Shown here: positions 36,441 to 48,715 of the stretch, one piece after another | Layout of the letters: every line of letters begins with the position of its first letter | Position numbering within the stretch: the stretch's first letter is position 1 | Assembly (NCBI GenBank): GCA_024103215.1 | Contig: JAGFIY010000122.1 | Coordinates: 1 to 64,000, forward strand | Length of the DNA stretch: 64,000 nucleotides | Direction: 5' to 3' | DNA from: Melioribacteraceae bacterium | GTDB lineage: Bacteria; Bacteroidota; Ignavibacteria; Ignavibacteriales; Melioribacteraceae | Notes under the pieces: generated by a model | What the model was told of the DNA's origin: nothing | Seen by the model: the letters and a program-made list of their open reading frames with translations, nothing else | The model's database searches: none | Position numbers and translations under genes: made by a program

Positions 36441-38030
36441 TTAAAACCGTTTGGTGAGATTGAGATAAAATCTTCCGTACGTAATATTCTCTTGAAATGT
36501 ACCTTCATAATTAAATGAAAGTGATAATTCTCTCATGATTTTCCATCCGAGATCAAACATAACAGTTTTCTGATTAAGTTTTGAATTGGTGTTCAAATAT
36601 TCATAATCCACTAAGCGAACACCTAAACCGCTGTAAATAATTCCTGAGATAATATCCCGTGACATTCTTAGCGCAAATATATTTCCATCCACATAATTTG
36701 TCTCAAGTGAATTATAATTAATACTGAGTGATGCTTCAACAAAAGGAACTCTAGTGTAAGAAGCAGAAGCTCCGAAAGTGATAGAAGGATTTTGATCGCC
36801 TTCTGTTTTTCTATAGCCATAATTTGCCGATAGCATCAAGTATTTTATTGGGCGTACTGTTGTTCTAATTCTTATACCTTGACGTCTGGCTGATTCAAGA
36901 AGACTATCGGCATAATCTTTAAATGTTTCATAATAAATAACGTTTTTTCGTGAATCATAACTTACCGAAAAACTTAATTCCGAAATTGGTCTGTACGAAA
37001 CTGAACCATAAATACCTGTGAATGAAAAATCGGATTTTTCTTGGTTGTTCTCGCGTTTGTACAAATCGATCTCTGCTGAGAGAAACAAATGAACGTTTTC
37101 AATAAAACTATTGTTATGTTGAAGATATAAAAATCTTCTATCTGTATTGAAATCGTTAGTCTGCTGAAATGCAGCTAATGATGTTTGAATAAGTCTATTT
37201 TTTATCGTATCGGAATGAGAGATGAACGCTCCATATTCAAATAATTTTATGTTATAACCGTAATCTGAAAAATTTGGACGTGAACCTACAATGGCTCCGG
37301 TGGAAAAATCACCAAAATTGCTTTCGAACTGAAATCCGTCAATTGCGCCGATATTTGAAACTTTTCTATTAATTTTTCTTCCGATGCTTAAGGTCATTCT
37401 TTCGTTTAATTCATAGCCGGCATTAAGACTGTAAATTTTAACAGCTTTTCCAATATTTTCCGTTATTTTAGCCCATTCGGTAGTTCTATAGTTAAAAGAA
37501 AGATAAGACTCAACCGAAACCGGGGTCTCGCCAAGATTTTCTCCTCTAAACGATGCGGTATAACGCCAACGTTGATAATCAATTGAGTTTGTATTCGATA
37601 AATTCGAATAAGTCGATATTGAGAGTTTTCCATTAATATTTTCTTTGAACGAACTTTCGAGCACTTGCGTTATTTCGCTATCCTGTTTGATTAATTCATC
37701 ATCGGTTACTTCTTTTTCCTGCACATCAACAATTGGTTTTTCGGCGATCGATTTTTTACCATAAATTTTATCTCCTACTTTAAGATCATAACCATTAATT
37801 GGTTTTCCCGCAGCTGAAGTTGTCGATAAAAATTCAATTAAAATCGCTGGGTTCATTACATTATTTGAAAGTGTAAAGAGAGTATCTTCGACAGATAAAC
37901 CTGTAGTATTACTAAACCTTACATATACATTTTGAGAAGAAAGATATGATACTTCGCCCTCTATTAAATTTGACTGTGCTAAAGCTGTTACAACAGATAT
38001 AAGAAATATGTATACTATTTTACTTATCAT
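36441..38030 (-). CDS. Outer-membrane beta-barrel protein of the multiheme operon
   Basis: A 529-residue exported protein with signal peptide MISKIVYIFLISVVTALAQ. A short globular N-terminal part (about 20-110) is followed by about 400 residues of alternating beta strands with aromatic girdles, ending YGRFYLNLTKRF, typical of an outer-membrane barrel. I do not recognise the family. Its start codon overlaps the stop of the giant cytochrome gene (ATGA), so the two are translationally coupled. By analogy with MtrB/PioB-type porin-cytochrome conduits I infer that it is a sleeve or anchor that lets the multiheme cytochrome reach the outside; no direct homology to MtrB is visible. Confidence 0.72.
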   Translation of the reverse strand: MISKIVYIFLISVVTALAQSNLIEGEVSYLSSQNVYVRFSNTTGLSVEDTLFTLSNNVMNPAILIEFLSTTSAAGKPINGYDLKVGDKIYGKKSIAEKPIVDVQEKEVTDDELIKQDSEITQVLESSFKENINGKLSISTYSNLSNTNSIDYQRWRYTASFRGENLGETPVSVESYLSFNYRTTEWAKITENIGKAVKIYSLNAGYELNERMTLSIGRKINRKVSNIGAIDGFQFESNFGDFSTGAIVGSRPNFSDYGYNIKLFEYGAFISHSDTIKNRLIQTSLAAFQQTNDFNTDRRFLYLQHNNSFIENVHLFLSAEIDLYKRENNQEKSDFSFTGIYGSVSYRPISELSFSVSYDSRKNVIYYETFKDYADSLLESARRQGIRIRTTVRPIKYLMLSANYGYRKTEGDQNPSITFGASASYTRVPFVEASLSINYNSLETNYVDGNIFALRMSRDIISGIIYSGLGVRLVDYEYLNTNSKLNQKTVMFDLGWKIMRELSLSFNYEGTFQENITYGRFYLNLTKRF

Positions 38031-41000
38031 TTAAAAGTGTTTTTTAATCTCAACATCAATTTATCGCTTCCATCCGGGTGACAGTCATAACATGCTTCGC
38101 TTTGATAAACATAACCGTTCACATCACTGTGTTCGTCGTCCATATCGGCTTGATTGTGCTCGTGACAATCAATACAGGAAAAGATTGAATAGTCATTAGC
38201 ATTAGTATGACAATCGGCGCAGACATTCCATTCTCCTTGATGTTTCCCGGAATAAATTGGGAAATATTGTCCATCGTGGTTAAATGTTGAAGGCACCCAA
38301 GCATTTGTATTATGGCATACTTCGCATGTCGTCGGGAATTGTGCCGACGCGTGCGGAGGATTTGTTGAATTATTATAATCGTCCTGATGACATCCAATAC
38401 ATTCATTTGGTGTATTATTGTAATCCCCGTTATGGCAATCAGCACAGTTATCTGCAATGGCTGCATGAGCACCCAGCAGAGGAAAGTAATCGTTATGAAT
38501 CGGAAATAGTGCAGGTTCCCAATTAGGTGCGGGTGTATGACAAGTTTCACACTGAAGCGGTAATCCCAGTGCTTGATGATTTGGATTTAGTGAATTATTA
38601 AAATCATCATTGTGACATGAATTGCAATCAGTTGGAGTTCCACTATAGCCTTGACTATGACATTCGCTGCATTCTACATTTTGATGTTCTCCAACAAGTG
38701 GAAAATCTGTGTTATCGTGGTCGAAACTCGTTTCTTCCCAACTATTAAAATTATGGCACATTTCACATTGAGTTGGGAAACTTTGGCTTAAGTGTTCTGG
38801 AGCCGAATTATATTCCTCTTCATGACATGAAAAACACAGAGGACTAGTGTTGGTTGTTGAGCCTTCATGACAACTTGAACATTGCTGAATTATTGCATGT
38901 TGACCCAATAGTTCAAATCCGGTTGTGGAATGATTAAAAGTTGATGGAACCCACCCGTTCGTGTTATGGCATGATTCACAATCAACTGATATTCCGGCAG
39001 CTGAATGATTTGGATTTTGTGTATTTGTATAATTATCATTATGGCAACTATTACAATCTTTCGGTGTGTTTGTGTATCCGTTTGTATGACAATCAGAGCA
39101 GTTTACATTTGTATGCTGTCCAGTTAGAGGAAATTCTGTAGTATTATGATCAAATGTTGTCTCTTCCCATGCATTTGAATTATGACACATCTCGCAAGTT
39201 GTTGGATATTGCTGAGCTAAGTGTTCGGGAGCTGAATTGTATTCGGTTTCATGACAAGCCAAACATAAAGGACTTGTGTTGCTTGTCGATCCTTCGTGAC
39301 AGTTCGAACATTGCTGAATATTTGCATGCTGACCTAATAATTCAAACCCGGTTGTGGAATGATTAAAAGTTGATGGATTCCAAAGAGTTGTTGTATGACA
39401 AGTTTCACACGTTGTTGCAATTCCCGCATCTTGATGATTCGGATTTGCTGCACTAGTGTAATTTGAATTATGACAATCAAAACATATTGTGGATGTTCCC
39501 GAATAACCTGTTGTATGACAAGCACTGCAGTCAGTATTTATATGAGAACCTGTCAGTGGGAATTGAGTATCATCGTGGTTAAATGAAGTTTCCTCCCAAG
39601 TCTGCGAATTATGACACATCTCACAAGTTGTCGGATAACGTTGGTCTATATGACCGGGAGCTGAATTATATTCATCTTCGTGACAAGCAAAACATTCCGC
39701 ACTGGTATTTGATGTCGAACCAACATGACAGCTTGAACACTGCTGAATTAATGCATGCTGACCCAATAATTCAAATCCGGTTGTAAGATGATTAAATTCC
39801 GATGGTTTCCAAACAGATGTGCTATGACAAGTTTCACATTCTAGTGAAATACCAGCTTCTGTATGATTTGGCAGAATCGCAGATGAATAATCATCACTGT
39901 GACAATCTTTGCAGAGTGAAGGTGTTCCTGAATAACCAGAAGTATGACAAACCAAACAATCAACATTTATATGTGAGCCAGTTAAGGGGAAATCTGTATT
40001 ATCGTGAGAGAATGATGTTTCCTCCCAACCAACCGGAGAATGACACATTTCGCATTCCGTCGGATAAGCTTGGGAAACATGCTCCGGTGCTGTATTATAT
40101 TCCTCATTGTGACATTCAAAACAAATTAAAGGAGTGTTTTGAGTTGTTCCCAAATGGCAATCGGAACACTGTTGAATTGAAGAATGCAGACCAATTAATT
40201 CAAAACCTGTTGAGGAATGATTAAAGTTAGAAGGTGTCCAAGCGTCCGTGTTATGGCATGTTTCACACTCCTGAGGAAGCCCAGCCGCTGTATGATTTGG
40301 GTTTAAAGAACCGGTGTAATCATCATTATGACATTCATTACAAAATATAGGTGTGTTTGCATAACCGTTTGAATGGCATTCGAAACAATCAATTGTTCTA
40401 TGTGCACCGGTTAATGGGAAATTTGAATTTGCATGATTAAAACTTTCATCCCCGCTCCCTGTTGGATGACATGCGAAACACTCAGTGGACTGATAAATAT
40501 ATCCATCTACACCCTGGTGTTCTTCGTCAGTATCCGTGCGGTTATGCTCGTGACAATCAATGCAACTGAAAATTGAAAAATTATTTTGAACTGTATGGCA
40601 ATCAGAACATTCAACCCATTCACCATTGTGTTCGCCTGAGTAAATTGGGAAATATTGTGCATCGTGATCAAATGTTGCCGGTTCCCAAGCAGTTGTTGTA
40701 TGACAAGTTTCGCAGTCAGTCGAAAATCCTGCTGATGTATGGTTTGGATCTTGTGTGTTATTAAAATCATCAGAGTGACAGTTAAAGCAATTGTTTGGAG
40801 TAGATGTATATTGACCTTCGTGACAAGAAAAACAATCATTGGCAATTAATGAATGCGCCCCATCCAATACAAAAAACTCATCATGAATTATAAACTGAGC
40901 CGGTTCCCAACCAGCCACGGTTGTGTGACAATCTTCACATTGTTGAGAAATTGAAAGTTCAATATGATTTGGATTTATCGCAGAATTATAGTCAGTTGTA

Positions 41001-42583
41001 TGGCAATCGAAGCATAGGTTAGGTGTATTTGAATAACCAGATGAATGACATTCAGAACAATCATTTACTGAAGCATGTGCTCCATCTATTACAAAGAACT
41101 CATTATGAACGGGAAACTGCGCAGGCTCCCATCCCGGAAGGGCTGAATGACAATCAGCACAATTAGTAGATAAACCAAGTTGTTGATGGTTTGGATCAGA
41201 ACTTGAATTATAATCCTCTAAATGACAAGATGAACATTCGGTTGAAGTTCCTTGATAACCGGAAGCATGACAGTCAACACATTCTGTAAAAAGGTGAGAA
41301 TCAAGAAGTGGAAAATCAGTTAATGAATGATTAAAACTATCTTCGGAACTGCCGTTCGGATGGCAAGCATAACAACTTTGGCTGTCGTAATTATAACCGT
41401 TAACCCCACTGTGCTCCTCATCCATATCCGTTTGATTATGCTCGTGACAATCAGTGCAGCTGAAAAATGTAAAGTCAGTACTATTTGTATGACAATCCGT
41501 GCAATTATCCCATTCGCCGAAATGCTCTCCTGAATAAATCGGGAAATATTGTCCATCGTGATCAAATGTCGAAGGAGTCCATGCAGTAGAATTATGACAT
41601 TCTTCGCATTCAGTTGAAAAATTTGATGTTGAGTGCGGCGGATCTAAAGTGTTGTTGTAATCTGATTCATGACAACCGAAACACAAGTTCGGCGTATTGT
41701 TGTATCCAGTAGTGTGGCATTGTACACAATCATTTCTAATTTCGTTATGCGCTCCGATTAACGGATATATATCATCATGATTAACAAAACTTGCAGGCTG
41801 CCATCCTGGATTAAGCGTATGACATGTTTCGCAGTTTTGCGGAAAACTATTCTCAATGTGGTTTGGATTTGTGGTTGTGCTATAATCTTCAGAGTGGCAT
41901 TGGTAACACTCTTGAGATAAACCGGAAAATGAGTCTTGATTATGGCATGCGAAACAATCACCAATTGAATGTCCTTGAACTAATGGAAAGAAATCATGTG
42001 AAATATTCTGTGTTGTCCATGTCTGATCGGTTAATTGATGACATTCGAGACAATCGGTTGGAAATCCTGCTTGAACGTGATTAGGATTCTGACTGTTAAG
42101 GTAATCTTGCTGATGACACACAAAGCATTCGATTTCGAAAGGTTCAAAACGAAGCAGCGAACTCGTTTGATGACATGCATAACAATCTGCTGTTCTGTGA
42201 GCACCAAGTAATGGAAATCTGCTAAGCTCATGGATTTCGATAATGTTTGATACGACCCATGATTGCGGTTCGTGACACCTTGCACAGTCGTTACCAAGTG
42301 TAGTTTCATGGATATCGGTGTGACATTCAAAACAATTTGTTGGAGCTTGATTGAAAACCAAAGACTCGTGACAGTCAATACAATTGACTGATTTGTGTTG
42401 TCCTGATAATTCAAAATTTGTGCTGGAGTGATCGAACTTTACTTCATCTAAATTTATTTCCCAATTAATATTGTTATGACAATTTTCGCAGTCAAGTTTA
42501 AAATCTTTTCCGTGTGGAGATTGAGCAAACGAAAACGATAAAAAACCTATCAATAAAAAAATTATTCGTGACAAGTTTTGCAT
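38027..42583 (-). CDS. Giant 61-heme c-type cytochrome
   Basis: A 1518-residue exported protein with signal peptide MQNLSRIIFLLIGFLSFSFAQ and, by my count, 61 CXXCH heme-attachment motifs, one per 25 residues. Many motifs stand in a context F-x-H-x-x-T-x-F-x-L-x-G-x-H, which supplies distal His ligands for bis-His c-type hemes. Residues about 795-1367 are four tandem units of exactly 143 residues (six hemes each). A three-heme module around CxDCHEHNxTDxDEEH and CYACHPxG occurs near residues 350, 645 and 1440, the last copy ending the protein. Function: long-range electron transfer outside the cytoplasm, probably to an extracellular acceptor or between cells. It overlaps the 20-heme gene upstream by 22 bases and the barrel gene downstream by four. 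Confidence 0.93.
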   Translation of the reverse strand: MQNLSRIIFLLIGFLSFSFAQSPHGKDFKLDCENCHNNINWEINLDEVKFDHSSTNFELSGQHKSVNCIDCHESLVFNQAPTNCFECHTDIHETTLGNDCARCHEPQSWVVSNIIEIHELSRFPLLGAHRTADCYACHQTSSLLRFEPFEIECFVCHQQDYLNSQNPNHVQAGFPTDCLECHQLTDQTWTTQNISHDFFPLVQGHSIGDCFACHNQDSFSGLSQECYQCHSEDYSTTTNPNHIENSFPQNCETCHTLNPGWQPASFVNHDDIYPLIGAHNEIRNDCVQCHTTGYNNTPNLCFGCHESDYNNTLDPPHSTSNFSTECEECHNSTAWTPSTFDHDGQYFPIYSGEHFGEWDNCTDCHTNSTDFTFFSCTDCHEHNQTDMDEEHSGVNGYNYDSQSCYACHPNGSSEDSFNHSLTDFPLLDSHLFTECVDCHASGYQGTSTECSSCHLEDYNSSSDPNHQQLGLSTNCADCHSALPGWEPAQFPVHNEFFVIDGAHASVNDCSECHSSGYSNTPNLCFDCHTTDYNSAINPNHIELSISQQCEDCHTTVAGWEPAQFIIHDEFFVLDGAHSLIANDCFSCHEGQYTSTPNNCFNCHSDDFNNTQDPNHTSAGFSTDCETCHTTTAWEPATFDHDAQYFPIYSGEHNGEWVECSDCHTVQNNFSIFSCIDCHEHNRTDTDEEHQGVDGYIYQSTECFACHPTGSGDESFNHANSNFPLTGAHRTIDCFECHSNGYANTPIFCNECHNDDYTGSLNPNHTAAGLPQECETCHNTDAWTPSNFNHSSTGFELIGLHSSIQQCSDCHLGTTQNTPLICFECHNEEYNTAPEHVSQAYPTECEMCHSPVGWEETSFSHDNTDFPLTGSHINVDCLVCHTSGYSGTPSLCKDCHSDDYSSAILPNHTEAGISLECETCHSTSVWKPSEFNHLTTGFELLGQHALIQQCSSCHVGSTSNTSAECFACHEDEYNSAPGHIDQRYPTTCEMCHNSQTWEETSFNHDDTQFPLTGSHINTDCSACHTTGYSGTSTICFDCHNSNYTSAANPNHQDAGIATTCETCHTTTLWNPSTFNHSTTGFELLGQHANIQQCSNCHEGSTSNTSPLCLACHETEYNSAPEHLAQQYPTTCEMCHNSNAWEETTFDHNTTEFPLTGQHTNVNCSDCHTNGYTNTPKDCNSCHNDNYTNTQNPNHSAAGISVDCESCHNTNGWVPSTFNHSTTGFELLGQHAIIQQCSSCHEGSTTNTSPLCFSCHEEEYNSAPEHLSQSFPTQCEMCHNFNSWEETSFDHDNTDFPLVGEHQNVECSECHSQGYSGTPTDCNSCHNDDFNNSLNPNHQALGLPLQCETCHTPAPNWEPALFPIHNDYFPLLGAHAAIADNCADCHNGDYNNTPNECIGCHQDDYNNSTNPPHASAQFPTTCEVCHNTNAWVPSTFNHDGQYFPIYSGKHQGEWNVCADCHTNANDYSIFSCIDCHEHNQADMDDEHSDVNGYVYQSEACYDCHPDGSDKLMLRLKNTFK
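38484..40200 (-). repeat. Four tandem 429-bp repeats inside the giant cytochrome gene
   Basis: The segment coding for GFEL(L/I)G(Q/L)H...IQQC recurs with its plus-strand marker ttcaaa(t/c)cc at 38912, 39341, 39770 and 40199 (ttcaaaacc in the last), three intervals of exactly 429 bp. Each unit codes for 143 residues and six CXXCH motifs in the order CSxCH, CFxCH, CEMCH, CxxCH, CxxCH, CETCH. Confidence 0.9.
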
Positions 42584-44136
42584 TTTATCTCTTCATATTT
42601 ATATTTAACGAACACTCCTGTCTTTAAGTTCTTTTTGGGATGACACTTTTCACAGCTTACATTAATATGAGCTCCATCCAATGGGAAATCTGTTTCAGAA
42701 TGATTGAAATTTACAGGCTTCCAATCGAAATACCCATGACATCTAGCGCAGTCGGTTTTCCCATTTATTCTAAATTGTTGAAAATGTTGGTCCTCATGGC
42801 AGAACTCGCAATCTTTAGGTAACCCTTGAAATTGTTGAACATTATTACCCTGTTTATCTTTAAAATGACAGTTCCTGCAGCTTGTTTTTAGATGTGTCCC
42901 AATCAATTCAAAACCTGTTTTAGAATGATCGAAGTTATTCACAGACCAGCTATCCGAATTATGGCAATTTTCACAACCATTTTCAATGAAAAACTTATCA
43001 CTTATTTCATTTTTGTGAATGTTTTCATGACACGCAACGCACGAAATATCATTGAACAAAAAACTCCACTTATCATTTTTGTAATGACAATTAATACATG
43101 GCACGGCTAGATGACTTCCCTTTAGTTCAAATCTTGTTTTCGTATGTTCTATGATTCCAATAAGCGATGGAGAAAACCCTTGTTCTGTATGACATACACT
43201 ACAATCACGAAAATTATTTTTTACTAATTCTCCTTTATGATAATCCTCGTGACAATCTGAACATAATTCGTGTTTTATTTTTACCGTATAAGATTCTTTA
43301 TGACATTTACTGCATTCGATATTTGCATGTTTCCCTATAAGTGTAAAGTTTGTTTTAGAGTGATCAAATCTTTGAAGATTTACAGTATTCCTAAATGATA
43401 TTTCATTATGGCATTCAAGGCAATTGTTGCCGAACTTTCCCCTGTGTACATCTTCATGACAATCGATACATTTTTCGAAATTTTGTATTCTGAATATCTT
43501 CGTATTCTCACTTTGTATGTTTTTGTGACAAGTAAAACACTCGACCTTAACATGAGCCCCCTTTAAAACAAATTTCGTTTTATTGTGATCAAATAAATCC
43601 GCCGGTTTAAATGATTTAGTAGAGTGACAAGTCTGGCATTCATTTCCCAGTGTTTCATTATGTTTATCTTCATGACAGCTGATACATCTATTATTCAAAC
43701 CAAGGAAAGTATTTTTTCTCTCTACTGTAAAACTGCTGAATTTACTGTTATGACAACTGTTGCACTCAATTTTAATGTGCTTCCCCTGTAATTGATAACC
43801 GGTTAAATCGTGATTGAATGATTTTTGATCAAATCTGATTAACTCAAAATTTCTTCCATGATGTTCGCTGTGACAGTCGTAACATTCTTTACCTTTTACT
43901 TCCGATGAAGAATGATATCCCTCATCATCATCAATTCTTGTTTTAATTTCTGAATGACATTCTAAACATTTAGAATTATAAACTTTTTCACCGAGAACAT
44001 GACATTTTGTACAGTTGCTCAACCCTTCCAAATCTTTATGTGCGTTTGATAAATCCCCTGGAGAAAGCTGGGCAAAGATTGAATTTGAAAGCAGCAGAAT
44101 TACAATAATTATAAATAATCGATTATTTCTTTTCAT
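42562..44136 (-). CDS. 20-heme c-type cytochrome
   Basis: About 524 residues with signal peptide MKRNNRLFIIIVILLLSNSIFAQ and 20 CXXCH motifs. The spacing pattern F-x-H-(S/N)-K-T-x-F-x-L-x-G-x-H-x-x-x-x-C-x-x-CH repeats about every 60-70 residues, the same building block as in the giant cytochrome. It should be a periplasmic multiheme wire linking the inner-membrane oxidoreductase to the surface cytochrome. I choose the ATG at 44136 because it gives the canonical signal peptide; the frame opens at 44157. It overlaps the oxidoreductase gene by 14 bases and the giant cytochrome gene by 22. Confidence 0.92.
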   Translation of the reverse strand: MKRNNRLFIIIVILLLSNSIFAQLSPGDLSNAHKDLEGLSNCTKCHVLGEKVYNSKCLECHSEIKTRIDDDEGYHSSSEVKGKECYDCHSEHHGRNFELIRFDQKSFNHDLTGYQLQGKHIKIECNSCHNSKFSSFTVERKNTFLGLNNRCISCHEDKHNETLGNECQTCHSTKSFKPADLFDHNKTKFVLKGAHVKVECFTCHKNIQSENTKIFRIQNFEKCIDCHEDVHRGKFGNNCLECHNEISFRNTVNLQRFDHSKTNFTLIGKHANIECSKCHKESYTVKIKHELCSDCHEDYHKGELVKNNFRDCSVCHTEQGFSPSLIGIIEHTKTRFELKGSHLAVPCINCHYKNDKWSFLFNDISCVACHENIHKNEISDKFFIENGCENCHNSDSWSVNNFDHSKTGFELIGTHLKTSCRNCHFKDKQGNNVQQFQGLPKDCEFCHEDQHFQQFRINGKTDCARCHGYFDWKPVNFNHSETDFPLDGAHINVSCEKCHPKKNLKTGVFVKYKYEEIKCKTCHE

Positions 44137-45463
44137 GCTTGAGAATCGCGTCCCCAAATTTTTTAGTAATTCTAATCCCGGCAGATTCTAAAAATTTAGT
44201 TGGTAACTCACCGCCGGCAAATATGTAAACCAGATCATTCTGAAATGTTTTAACTTCTCCTTCAATATCGATAATAACTTCTTCTTCCTTTATCTCAATA
44301 AGATTGGAATTATAAATAACATCCAACTTTTGCTTTTCAAGAGCTTCTTTTAATTTTGATTGGTTCTTTGGTTTGATTCTCGCAAATTTATCCTTTCTAT
44401 AACTAAGTTTTACTTCGTTGGTGTCAATTAACATCATTGCAGATTCAATTGCCGAATCGCCGCCGCCTACAACGATAATTTTTTTATCATTTATATTTTC
44501 CGGTTCAAGCAAACGATATGCAACGTTCGGGCTATTCTCACCTTTGATACCTAATTTTCTAGGCGTTCCACGCCTTCCGATTGTTAACAACACTTTCTTC
44601 GATTTAACAGAAGTACCTTGATTAGTAGTAACTATGAAACCTTCATCAACTTCATCAATTGATTCAATTTTTGTTCTTTCTGTTATTTCGATTTTATTTT
44701 CCGATAAAACCTTGTTCCATAATTTTAACAATTCCGATTTATTTGTTTCAACAAATTTAACTTTCCCATATAAAGGAAGATCCATAGGTGAGGTCATTAC
44801 TAATTTCGCTCGTGGAAAAGTATAAACAGTTCCGCCAAGACTATCCTGTTCGAATATCTGAAAATTTAATTTATTTTTTTTTGCCTCCAGCGCCGCAGAA
44901 ATACCTGCAGGACCGGCACCGATAATAACCAGGTCTAGTTTATCGGTATTTTTGTTCCCTTTTAATGTCGCGCAAATTGATTGAACAGCTTGCTTCCCTT
45001 GTTCAACCGCATTCTTTATCAAACCCATCCCGCCTATTTCACCGGCAATAAAAATTCCTTCAACATTTGTTTCAAAACTCGGTGAAACGTGCGGAAGTTC
45101 CACTCCCCTTTTTTCAGTACCGATACACAGGGTTATTGCTTCAACGGGACATGCATGAAAGCAAGCACCATGACCGATACATCTTGATGCATTTATTGTT
45201 TGTGCTTTCCCGTTTCTAATCCCGAGAATATCCTTCTCTGGACATGCTGCAATACATGCACCGCTTCCTATACAAGTATCTTGGTCAACAACTGGATGAA
45301 GAGATACAGGTTCAAAAAGTCCATCTGCTTTAGCGGCTTCAATCTTTTGTGAAACTACTTCAGAACTTTTTCTTCCTTTCCGGATATAAACTAAAATGAC
45401 AGCAACTACGAAAATGGAAACAATTCCGTAAACAAGAATTTCTTCAATTAAGACTTCGCTCAT
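44123..45463 (-). CDS. Membrane-anchored ferredoxin-FAD/NAD(P) oxidoreductase
   Basis: About 446 residues. An N-terminal helix (residues about 9-28) anchors it in the inner membrane. Two iron-sulfur motifs follow: CIGSGACIAACP (Cys64, 70, 74) and CIGHGACFHACP (Cys95, 101, 105); in both, the usual second Cys is replaced, by Ser67 and His98. Then comes IAGEIGGMGLIKNAVEQG, an FAD-binding Rossmann fold (LVIIGAGPAGISAALEA near 183) and an NAD(P)-binding fold (IIVVGGGDSAIESAMML near 330) as in thioredoxin-reductase-like enzymes. It probably moves electrons between NAD(P)H, FAD and Fe-S clusters toward the cytochromes. Its ATG at 45463 follows the cytochrome b-like gene's stop after one base. Confidence 0.88.
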   Translation of the reverse strand: MSEVLIEEILVYGIVSIFVVAVILVYIRKGRKSSEVVSQKIEAAKADGLFEPVSLHPVVDQDTCIGSGACIAACPEKDILGIRNGKAQTINASRCIGHGACFHACPVEAITLCIGTEKRGVELPHVSPSFETNVEGIFIAGEIGGMGLIKNAVEQGKQAVQSICATLKGNKNTDKLDLVIIGAGPAGISAALEAKKNKLNFQIFEQDSLGGTVYTFPRAKLVMTSPMDLPLYGKVKFVETNKSELLKLWNKVLSENKIEITERTKIESIDEVDEGFIVTTNQGTSVKSKKVLLTIGRRGTPRKLGIKGENSPNVAYRLLEPENINDKKIIVVGGGDSAIESAMMLIDTNEVKLSYRKDKFARIKPKNQSKLKEALEKQKLDVIYNSNLIEIKEEEVIIDIEGEVKTFQNDLVYIFAGGELPTKFLESAGIRITKKFGDAILKHEKK

Positions 45464-45464
45464 A

Positions 45465-46331
45465 TTAAAATATCCAGCGATAACCAAAAACAATTGTTAC
45501 CGCAACATGAACCAACATTATTACAAGCATAATTATAGCAAATGGAAGATGAGCTACGTGCCAGTACTTAAATAATTTTTGCATTGTACGCAGTTGACTG
45601 ATTCTTCTCTTTATTGTGAGTTTTCTTTTGACAAGTTTTACTATTTGTTTGTAGCGTTCACCGGTAATTTGATTTTTCTTTAAGTTATTTTTTACGGATG
45701 ATAATTCGGAAAAGTACAATTTGTATTGATCGATAACTTGTGAAAAAAGATTCCTTTTTTTATCTGAAGATTTACGAACATCTTTTTCAATCTCATAAAT
45801 AAAATCATCCGGCAAATTATAATCTGATTTAATCTCAGAGGAAATTCGTTCATTTAATTCTTCTATTTCCCTCACTGTCAATTCCCTTCCCTCAATGGTT
45901 CTAGGTATTTGAATATAAATAAATCTTCCTATCACACCGCTTAAAACAACAGCTACCATCGAAAAAAAACTTATCGATACAATCCCGCCGAACTTAAAAG
46001 CCGTATGATATAAAACCAATATTGGCCCGAGAGTGCATAAGAATATATGAAACTCAAGCCAGTGTTTTAAGATACCAATTCTTCCGAACTTACGAACTCT
46101 TTTCCTAAGCATGTATGTTGAAACACCTATCAGCATAAAAAGAGAGCCGGCAATTCCTAAACCATGGCCTATAATTCCACTCGGCTTAAACAATTGGTGA
46201 GATTCGTGAAAGAATCTTTCTTCAAGTGAGGTTAAGTAATATGAGTATCCTTCATAACCAATAATTATAGTTGCAAATATTACGATAAAAACAAAAGTGC
46301 CAATATAAATACGGTGAACTGTTTTAGTCAT
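45465..46331 (-). CDS. Cytochrome b-like membrane protein of the multiheme operon
   Basis: A 288-residue inner-membrane protein with about five helices: near residues 9-28, 52-75, 92-112, 118-137 and 258-282. Histidines sit at helix positions fit for heme b: GIIGHGLGIAG, KHWLEFHIFLCTLGPILVLYHTAFKFGG and the last helix YWHVAHLPFAIIMLVIMLVHVAV. Between helices 4 and 5 is a charged, helical cytosolic domain of about 110 residues. I do not see a named family match, but the pattern suggests a di-heme b-type quinone-reactive subunit. It is the first gene of the five-gene operon, and so would feed electrons to the cytochromes from quinol. Confidence 0.75.
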   Translation of the reverse strand: MTKTVHRIYIGTFVFIVIFATIIIGYEGYSYYLTSLEERFFHESHQLFKPSGIIGHGLGIAGSLFMLIGVSTYMLRKRVRKFGRIGILKHWLEFHIFLCTLGPILVLYHTAFKFGGIVSISFFSMVAVVLSGVIGRFIYIQIPRTIEGRELTVREIEELNERISSEIKSDYNLPDDFIYEIEKDVRKSSDKKRNLFSQVIDQYKLYFSELSSVKNNLKKNQITGERYKQIVKLVKRKLTIKRRISQLRTMQKLFKYWHVAHLPFAIIMLVIMLVHVAVTIVFGYRWIF

Positions 46332-48166: not shown

Positions 48167-48715
48167 ATGAAAAATGAATTTGAACAAATTACATTCGGAG
48201 CCGGATGTTTCTGGTGCGTTGAAACAATATTTTCAAAACTAAAAGGAGTTGAAAAAGTAGTTTCCGGTTATAGCGGTGGGAAAAAAGAAAATCCTACATA
48301 TCAAGAAGTATGTACAGGGAATACAGGACACGCTGAAGTATGTCAAATTACATACAATCCTAATATTATTTCGTTTGAAGAACTCCTTGAAATATTTTGG
48401 AAAACACATGATCCGACGACTATAAATCGTCAAGGTGCCGATGTTGGAACACAATACCGTTCTGCAATTTTCTACCACAATGATGAACAGAAAAATCTGT
48501 CCGAAAAATACAAGCAAGCACTGCATAACTCCGGAATATTTGAAAATCCGGTTGTTACCGAAATCTCACCGTTAATAAATTTTTATCCCGCCGAAAATTA
48601 TCATCAAAATTATTTTGAAGAAAACAGATCACAGCCTTACTGCAGTATGGTAATTTCACCGAAGGTAAAAAAGTTCGAGCAAATTTTTGGTGAAAAGATT
48701 AAACGGTCGCAATAA
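48167..48715 (+). CDS. msrA: Peptide-methionine (S)-S-oxide reductase MsrA
   Basis: A 182-residue enzyme reducing methionine S-sulfoxide. The active site is FGAGCFWCVE with catalytic Cys14 and Cys17; VVSGYSGGKKENPTYQEVC and FWKTHDPTTINRQGADVGTQYRSAIF are family signatures. There is no signal peptide, so it is cytosolic. Ribosome site agaaagg precedes the ATG. It complements the secreted MsrB at 46445. Confidence 0.95.
   Translation: MKNEFEQITFGAGCFWCVETIFSKLKGVEKVVSGYSGGKKENPTYQEVCTGNTGHAEVCQITYNPNIISFEELLEIFWKTHDPTTINRQGADVGTQYRSAIFYHNDEQKNLSEKYKQALHNSGIFENPVVTEISPLINFYPAENYHQNYFEENRSQPYCSMVISPKVKKFEQIFGEKIKRSQ

What the first reader, a model, noticed from the sequence alone, without database searches (positions are those of the whole stretch)
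36441..46331. Five-gene operon with features of a complete transmembrane electron conduit to the cell surface
The genes overlap or abut in one direction and encode, in order, a cytochrome b-like membrane protein, an Fe-S/FAD oxidoreductase with a membrane anchor, a 20-heme cytochrome, a 61-heme cytochrome and an outer-membrane beta barrel. That is a natural path: quinol or NAD(P)H at the inner membrane, periplasmic wire, outer-membrane sleeve, surface cytochrome. None of the proteins is visibly MtrCAB, OmcS or PioAB, so this could be an undescribed extracellular electron-transfer system. The direction of flow (export or import) cannot be read.
Basis: partly seen in the sequence, partly recalled or inferred. 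Interest (0 to 1): 0.85.

Follow-up and report, generated by a model that had tools for sequence, protein, structure and literature searches.

The report
NADPH-linked multiheme electron conduit operon
A conserved set of five genes, found in many uncultured relatives of Bacteroides, appears to build an electrical wire from the NAD(P)H pool inside the cell to its outer surface; it resembles the little-studied PCC3 system of proteobacteria but carries its own NAD(P)H-oxidising input enzyme.

Summary
Five genes on the minus strand (46331 to 36441) abut or overlap: a 5-TM b-type cytochrome, a membrane-anchored 2xFe-S/FAD protein, 20-heme and 61-heme cytochromes, and a barrel modelled with 22 strands. 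The module recurs in about 85 full copies among fetched loci of Ignavibacteria and Bacteroidia, including isolate Labilibaculum sp. K2S and a plasmid of Emticicia oligotrophica. In 58 genomes of the order, full-length cytb and Fe-S/FAD genes occur in exactly the same 27. The small cytochrome nearly always has 20 hemes (23 mainly in Saprospiraceae); the large one has 10 to 67, mostly 3n+1, as tandem ~75-aa triheme units. Layout and inner-membrane motifs (WX3HX13H twice, SGXXG) match PCC3, described in 2017 in proteobacteria, so 'undescribed' is only partly right. New relative to published PCC3: the dedicated NAD(P)H-type flavoprotein, the Bacteroidota-wide distribution and the triheme length ladder. 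Best reading: NAD(P)H to FAD to Fe-S to two b hemes to a fixed-length periplasmic wire to a variable-length wire at the barrel, mainly electron export. Direction, surface exposure and substrate are untested. The Fe(III) reducer Melioribacter roseus lacks it.

The parts
45465..46331 (-). cytb / PCC3-type inner membrane protein, 288 aa, 5 TM helices; WX3HX13H at W91 (TM3: H95, H109) and W257 (TM5: H261, H275), SGXXG at 131 (TM4); predicted to hold two stacked b hemes
   Evidence: family of 479 relatives; no Pfam or NCBIfam model reaches its cut-off
44123..45463 (-). Fe-S/FAD oxidoreductase: N-terminal TM anchor, ferredoxin-like domain with invariant C74, C80, C84, C105, H108, C111, C115, then YpdA/TrxR-type FAD/NAD(P) domain with invariant R366 (NADPH-type site). 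ORF can be read from 45493; alignment favours the start at 45463
42562..44136 (-). MHC20, periplasmic c-type cytochrome, 20 CXXCH, signal peptide; heme number nearly fixed across the family
38027..42583 (-). MHC61, 1518 aa, 61 CXXCH as tandem ~75-aa triheme units plus one; Sec signal peptide, no lipobox; the C-terminal cap-like segment occurs three times
36441..38030 (-). outer-membrane barrel, 529 aa: signal peptide, N-terminal beta domain (22-92), disordered linker (93-130), 22-stranded barrel (131-528) ending in F

Best explanation
The operon encodes a whole-envelope electron conduit of PCC3-type architecture with its own cytoplasmic NAD(P)H input. NAD(P)H (probably NADPH) reduces FAD on the anchored Fe-S/FAD subunit; electrons pass through two Fe-S clusters to two b hemes stacked across the inner membrane in cytb, then to the 20-heme cytochrome, whose nearly fixed length suits spanning the periplasm, then to the variable-length triheme-repeat cytochrome held at the 22-stranded barrel, and on to an acceptor outside the cell. 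The main direction is export, for disposal of reducing power to extracellular oxidants such as minerals, humics or partner cells. Shown: genes, order, heme counts, motifs, conservation, co-occurrence, barrel model. Inferred: complex formation, NADPH specificity, heme-b content, periplasmic span, threading of the barrel, surface exposure, direction, acceptor.
For: Gene set and order conserved: 60 loci as in the window plus about 25 in variant orders, most of the rest cut by contig ends. In 58 genomes of the order full-length cytb and Fe-S/FAD occur in the same 27 genomes; the full-length barrel is in 26 of them, the 27th being cut by a contig end. PCC3 IMP motifs exact. Barrel model. 25-27 residues per heme, in the 'wire' range given for PCC3 (PMC5566968). 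Conserved basic residues after the Fe-S/FAD TM helix and the cytb RKR loop place the redox domains in the cytoplasm (positive-inside rule). The flavoprotein is closest to YpdA/Bdr and TrxR-type ferredoxin-NADP reductases but its only invariant cysteines are Fe-S ligands, so it is not a disulfide reductase. Independent support for NAD(P)H: distant cytb homologues (23-25% identity, tblastn E down to 1e-12) on plasmids sit in modules of a different FAD/2Fe-2S reductase, cytb and a heptaheme cytochrome, and in Bradyrhizobium BTAi1 such a module lies among the NADPH-pathway genes gnd, zwf and tal.
Against: No experiment exists. MHC61 has no lipid anchor or evident surface-sorting signal. Fold search matches the barrel to generic large barrels (TM-score at most 0.49 in the rows shown), not to MtrB in particular; cytb has no confident fold match. 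Fe(III)-reducing M. roseus (identified by its 3,300,414-bp chromosome) lacks all three genes tested, while Emticicia oligotrophica, an aerobe to my knowledge, carries the operon. A reverse direction is not excluded.
Confidence: 0.6

Rival explanations
1. Same conduit run inwards: extracellular electrons (Fe(II), minerals, partner cells) enter through MHC61 and MHC20, and cytb plus the flavoprotein use the proton motive force to make NAD(P)H.
For: PCC3 was proposed for Fe(II) oxidation with electrons entering the quinone pool. TrxR-type FNRs are reversible. Emticicia, an aerobe with the operon, would have O2 as its acceptor. The window genome has two COX1-type oxidases.
Against: Energetically uphill by several hundred mV; no CO2-fixation link was tested; the plasmid-borne relatives sit beside NADPH-producing enzymes, which fits export.
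Confidence: 0.17
2. Quinone-linked PCC3: cytb exchanges electrons with menaquinone, as proposed for proteobacterial PCC3, and the flavoprotein is a side input or regulator.
For: The HX13H pairs are also those of quinone-active cytochromes b; He et al. 2017 drew this model.
Against: The flavoprotein is full-length in every genome of the order with full-length cytb (27 of 27) and nowhere else among the 58; distant cytb relatives also pair with a flavoprotein. No quinone-site evidence was found or sought.
Confidence: 0.13
3. A periplasmic electron store or detoxification reductase (for metals, peroxide or copper), with the barrel as an ordinary porin.
For: Distant cytb modules lie in copper-resistance regions of plasmids and have no barrel; methionine sulfoxide reductase genes lie nearby in the window.
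Against: The barrel is strictly co-inherited and adjacent to the large cytochrome; no terminal reductase is in the operon.
Confidence: 0.1

Closest known systems
PCC3 (porin-cytochrome c complex 3; He et al. 2017, PMC5566968; Gallionellaceae survey PMC10734462)
   Same: Porin, a periplasmic MHC (21, 24 or 27 hemes there; 20, 23 or 26 here), a variable large MHC (10-85 there; 10-67 here), about 25 residues per heme, repeat-built sequence, and a ~300-aa five-TM inner membrane protein with WX3HX13H on TM3 and TM5 and SGXXG on TM4.
   Different: Here an NAD(P)H-type Fe-S/FAD subunit belongs to the operon; the hosts are Ignavibacteria and Bacteroidia; the barrel is modelled with 22 strands, whereas PCC3 porins were predicted with up to 42 TM segments. 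Sequence homology to proteobacterial PCC3 proteins could not be tested.
MtrCAB / PioAB / MtoAB
   Same: Multiheme cytochrome and barrel adjacent in one operon.
   Different: No MtrB_PioB match in the whole genome; the large MHC is far below the DmsE (MtrA) cut-off and the 10-heme forms do not match it at all; no lipoprotein MtrC.
Geobacter Omb-Oma-Omc / Ext PCCs, and the I. album pcc cluster (IALB_1838, 14 hemes; PMC4245776)
   Same: Outer-membrane porin-cytochrome principle.
   Different: Inner-membrane and NAD(P)H parts are in the operon, and the heme numbers differ. The OmbB and Ext porins were not compared by profile here.
NADPH oxidase / ferric reductase (FRD) superfamily
   Same: Two HX13H pairs on TM3 and TM5 and an NAD(P)H-FAD electron input on the cytoplasmic side.
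   Different: Separate Fe-S/TrxR-type flavoprotein instead of a fused FNR domain; output to multiheme cytochromes; no Pfam FRD match.
Plasmid-borne FNR, cytb and heptaheme modules (Alteromonas, Sphingobium, Methylophaga, Bradyrhizobium BTAi1)
   Same: Distantly related 5-TM cytb with a flavoprotein and a periplasmic multiheme cytochrome.
   Different: Unrelated FNR/2Fe-2S flavoprotein, 7 hemes, no barrel and no long cytochrome.

Membership tests
PCC3 | Adjacent genes for porin, two large MHCs and an IMP | tested here: met
PCC3 | IMP ~300 aa, 5 TM, WX3HX13H on TM3 and TM5, SGXXG on TM4 | tested here: met
   Window cytb: W91-H95-H109, W257-H261-H275, SGVIG at 131; against PMC5566968. Several distant family members lack the TM3 tryptophan.
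PCC3 | Low residue-to-heme ratio (22-39, median 26) and repeats | tested here: met
   Family medians 26.7 and 25.9, window 26.6 and 24.9
PCC3 | Sequence homology to proteobacterial PCC3 proteins | not testable with these tools
   No PCC3 sequence could be fetched; plasmid hits were barrel-less relatives
PCC3 | Large MHC is extracellular | not testable with these tools
   Predicted only; signal peptide without lipobox
Mtr/Pio/Mto | MtrB/PioB-family porin (PF11854) | tested here: not met
   Barrel has no Pfam match; no match in the genome
Mtr/Pio/Mto | MtrA/DmsE-family decaheme cytochrome (TIGR03508) | tested here: not met
   63.6 bits against a cut-off of 192.2; the three short forms scanned (10, 10 and 13 hemes) have no match
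Geobacter OmbB/Ext PCC | OmbB- or Ext-family porin | not tested
   No such profile was available; PDB and NCBIfam gave nothing for the barrel
TrxR / bacillithiol disulfide reductase | Redox-active cysteine(s) for disulfide chemistry | tested here: not met
   Invariant cysteines are only the Fe-S ligands; TIGR04018 155 bits against a cut-off of 339.9

The most novel reading that the evidence does not exclude
A quinone-independent, NADPH-driven whole-envelope conductor: one operon wires the cytoplasmic NADPH pool to the cell surface in hundreds of Bacteroidota and Ignavibacteria not considered electroactive, with the outer wire lengthened or shortened by gain and loss of triheme units, and exchanged between classes.
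Probability: 0.4. Interest if true: 0.85.

Novelty: new variant of a known kind. Interest (0 to 1): 0.62.

Why it matters
Known trans-envelope conduits are generally thought to take electrons from the quinone pool. A dedicated NAD(P)H entry would let fermenting cells dump reductant outside without a respiratory chain. The system is common in Bacteroidota of sediments, lakes and groundwater, where electron transfer to the outside is hardly considered; its marker genes (cytb, barrel) have no family model today, so surveys miss them. The isolate Labilibaculum sp. K2S and the type strain Emticicia oligotrophica DSM 17448 carry it, so the idea is directly testable. The contrast between a fixed 20-heme and a variable 3n+1-heme cytochrome gives a testable rule about what spans the periplasm and what extends beyond it.

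Tried and rejected
MtrCAB/PioAB identity: rejected by family scans. PDB sequence search of cytb, barrel and both cytochromes: nothing credible. Fold search of cytb: no confident match; of the barrel: only generic barrels, so neither was used to name a family. My hope that the operon would mark known Fe(III) reducers failed: M. roseus lacks it. Guessing that another single-contig relative (G119) was I. album was dropped, since I had no source to check its length (3,665,746 bp) against.

Full report
Observation. The five genes lie on the minus strand at 46331-36441 and abut or overlap. Heme motifs number exactly 20 and 61, with no other cysteine in either protein. The window is contig C166 of a 3.2-Mb, 186-contig assembly.

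Conservation. The barrel protein, alone, finds relatives in 47 of 197 genomes of the class. Fetched neighbourhoods show the same five genes almost every time. A cytb profile found 479 relatives in genome contigs; the best 80 are mostly Bacteroidetes (Bacteroidales, Prolixibacteraceae, Saprospiraceae, Marinifilaceae) plus Ignavibacteria, again with the full operon where the contig is long enough. Two orders occur: cytb, Fe-S/FAD, MHC20, large MHC, barrel (60 loci; the window's) and cytb, MHC20, large MHC (sometimes with a separate 10-heme protein), barrel, Fe-S/FAD (other families of the class and other parts of the phylum). In 58 genomes of the order, full-length cytb and full-length Fe-S/FAD are in the same 27; full-length barrel is in 26 of these, and in the 27th, G469, the operon is cut by a contig end. 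Two further genomes carry remnants: in G125 a truncated cytb is followed directly by the last part of the barrel, and G513 keeps only a broken barrel end.

Parts. cytb: five TM helices (mean pLDDT 77), invariant H95, H109, H258, H261, H275. HX13H pairs on TM3 and TM5 are the ligand pattern of two stacked b hemes. Fe-S/FAD: TM helix followed by conserved basic residues, so the domain is cytoplasmic by the positive-inside rule; the second cluster motif is CxxHxxCxxxCP with H108 invariant in 31 sequences, and the second ligand position of the first is Ser, Thr or Cys. Its nearest solved relatives are YpdA/Bdr and TrxR-type ferredoxin-NADP reductases. Y365-R366 aligns with the His-Arg of the E. 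coli TrxR NADPH site (own knowledge), hence probable NADPH preference. Barrel: N-terminal beta domain, linker, 22 strands. A 22-strand barrel has an estimated backbone radius near 20 A against about 24 A for 26 strands (standard barrel geometry), so a thin cytochrome could fit; this is inference.

The two cytochromes behave differently. MHC20 has exactly 20 hemes in 76 of the complete homologues and 23 in 14; the rest are 19, 26 or broken pieces. The large one ranges from 10 to 67 hemes and 66 of 93 counts are 3n+1; related sequences are not independent, so this is a pattern, not a p-value. The window protein reads as twenty ~75-aa triheme units plus one heme. Short forms of 10 and 13 hemes share an N-terminal SPHG segment and a C-terminal cap; the cap-like segment occurs three times in the 61-heme protein and more than once in many other long forms. 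He et al. cite about 100 A for the 10-heme MtrA; 20 hemes would give about 200 A, near the width of the periplasm (own knowledge). A fixed length suits the periplasmic wire and a free length the outer one. This is inference and agrees with the PCC3 model.

Known relatives. PCC3 (PMC5566968; PMC10734462) has porin, periplasmic MHC of about 21 hemes, variable MHC and an IMP. The IMP motifs are met exactly in the window protein. PCC3's function is untested (PMC12442390). PCC3 was listed in Alpha-, Beta- and Gammaproteobacteria with a quinone-pool model and no flavoprotein. No held paper contains PCC3, multiheme and Bacteroid- together. Ignavibacteria are known for other PCCs. I file the operon as PCC3-like in architecture and motif, with homology to proteobacterial PCC3 untested.

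NAD(P)H input. Besides strict co-occurrence, distant cytb homologues on plasmids lie between an FNR-type FAD/2Fe-2S reductase and a 7-heme cytochrome. In Bradyrhizobium BTAi1 this module sits among gnd, zwf and tal. So this cytb kind repeatedly pairs with NAD(P)H flavoproteins of two unrelated types.

History. In a cytb plus Fe-S/FAD tree the window branches next to a clade of Bacteroidia and Saprospiria (SH-aLRT 100) that is nested among sequences of the window's own family and order (midpoint root, drawing only). Transfer between classes is likely, from Ignavibacteria outward if the root is right. Plasmid carriage in Emticicia offers a vehicle.

Physiology. The chromosome length identifies G153 as M. 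roseus (3,300,414 bp), an Fe(III) reducer without cytb, Fe-S/FAD or barrel. The window's genome has two heme-copper oxidases. Thus the operon is neither required for Fe(III) reduction in the class nor limited to strict anaerobes. Export is favoured because NAD(P)H oxidation is downhill, but direction remains open.

Noticed in passing
L181:1514-2636 (G125 C56), G513:C41:10025-10348: Decayed operons: in G125 a truncated cytb is followed directly by the last part of the barrel gene, the middle being gone; G513 keeps only a broken barrel end.
   Followed up: partly
L172:8899-21483 (plasmid pEMTOL02): Emticicia oligotrophica carries the operon (23 and 40 hemes) on a 100-kb plasmid, directly behind a ccsA-type cytochrome c maturation gene.
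   Followed up: partly
L179:4484-13130; L173:7974-19307; L178:4025-7812: Plasmid modules of FNR-type flavoprotein, 5-TM cytb and multiheme cytochrome (7 hemes where counted): among NADPH-pathway genes in Bradyrhizobium BTAi1, beside a NiFe hydrogenase in Alteromonas, in metal-resistance surroundings in sphingomonads.
   Followed up: partly
window:44126-45493 (residues 74-116): Ferredoxin-like domain with an invariant His in place of one cluster cysteine (CxxHxxCxxxCP), and Ser, Thr or Cys at the matching place of the other cluster.
   Followed up: partly
G066:C91:57593-58546, G019:C35:112053-113006 and five other genomes: A different ~830-850-aa open frame carries the same type of flavoprotein domain (E about 1e-80).
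   Followed up: no
G180:C1 2452606-2469678: cytb is separated from the rest of the operon by about 15 kb, apparently an insertion.
   Followed up: no
L102: cytb and Fe-S/FAD without any multiheme or barrel gene downstream in an Ignavibacteria MAG.
   Followed up: no
window:46445-46891 and 48167-48715: Apparent methionine sulfoxide reductase B and A genes (judged from sequence) close to the operon; the msrB-like gene is on the same strand just upstream.
   Followed up: no
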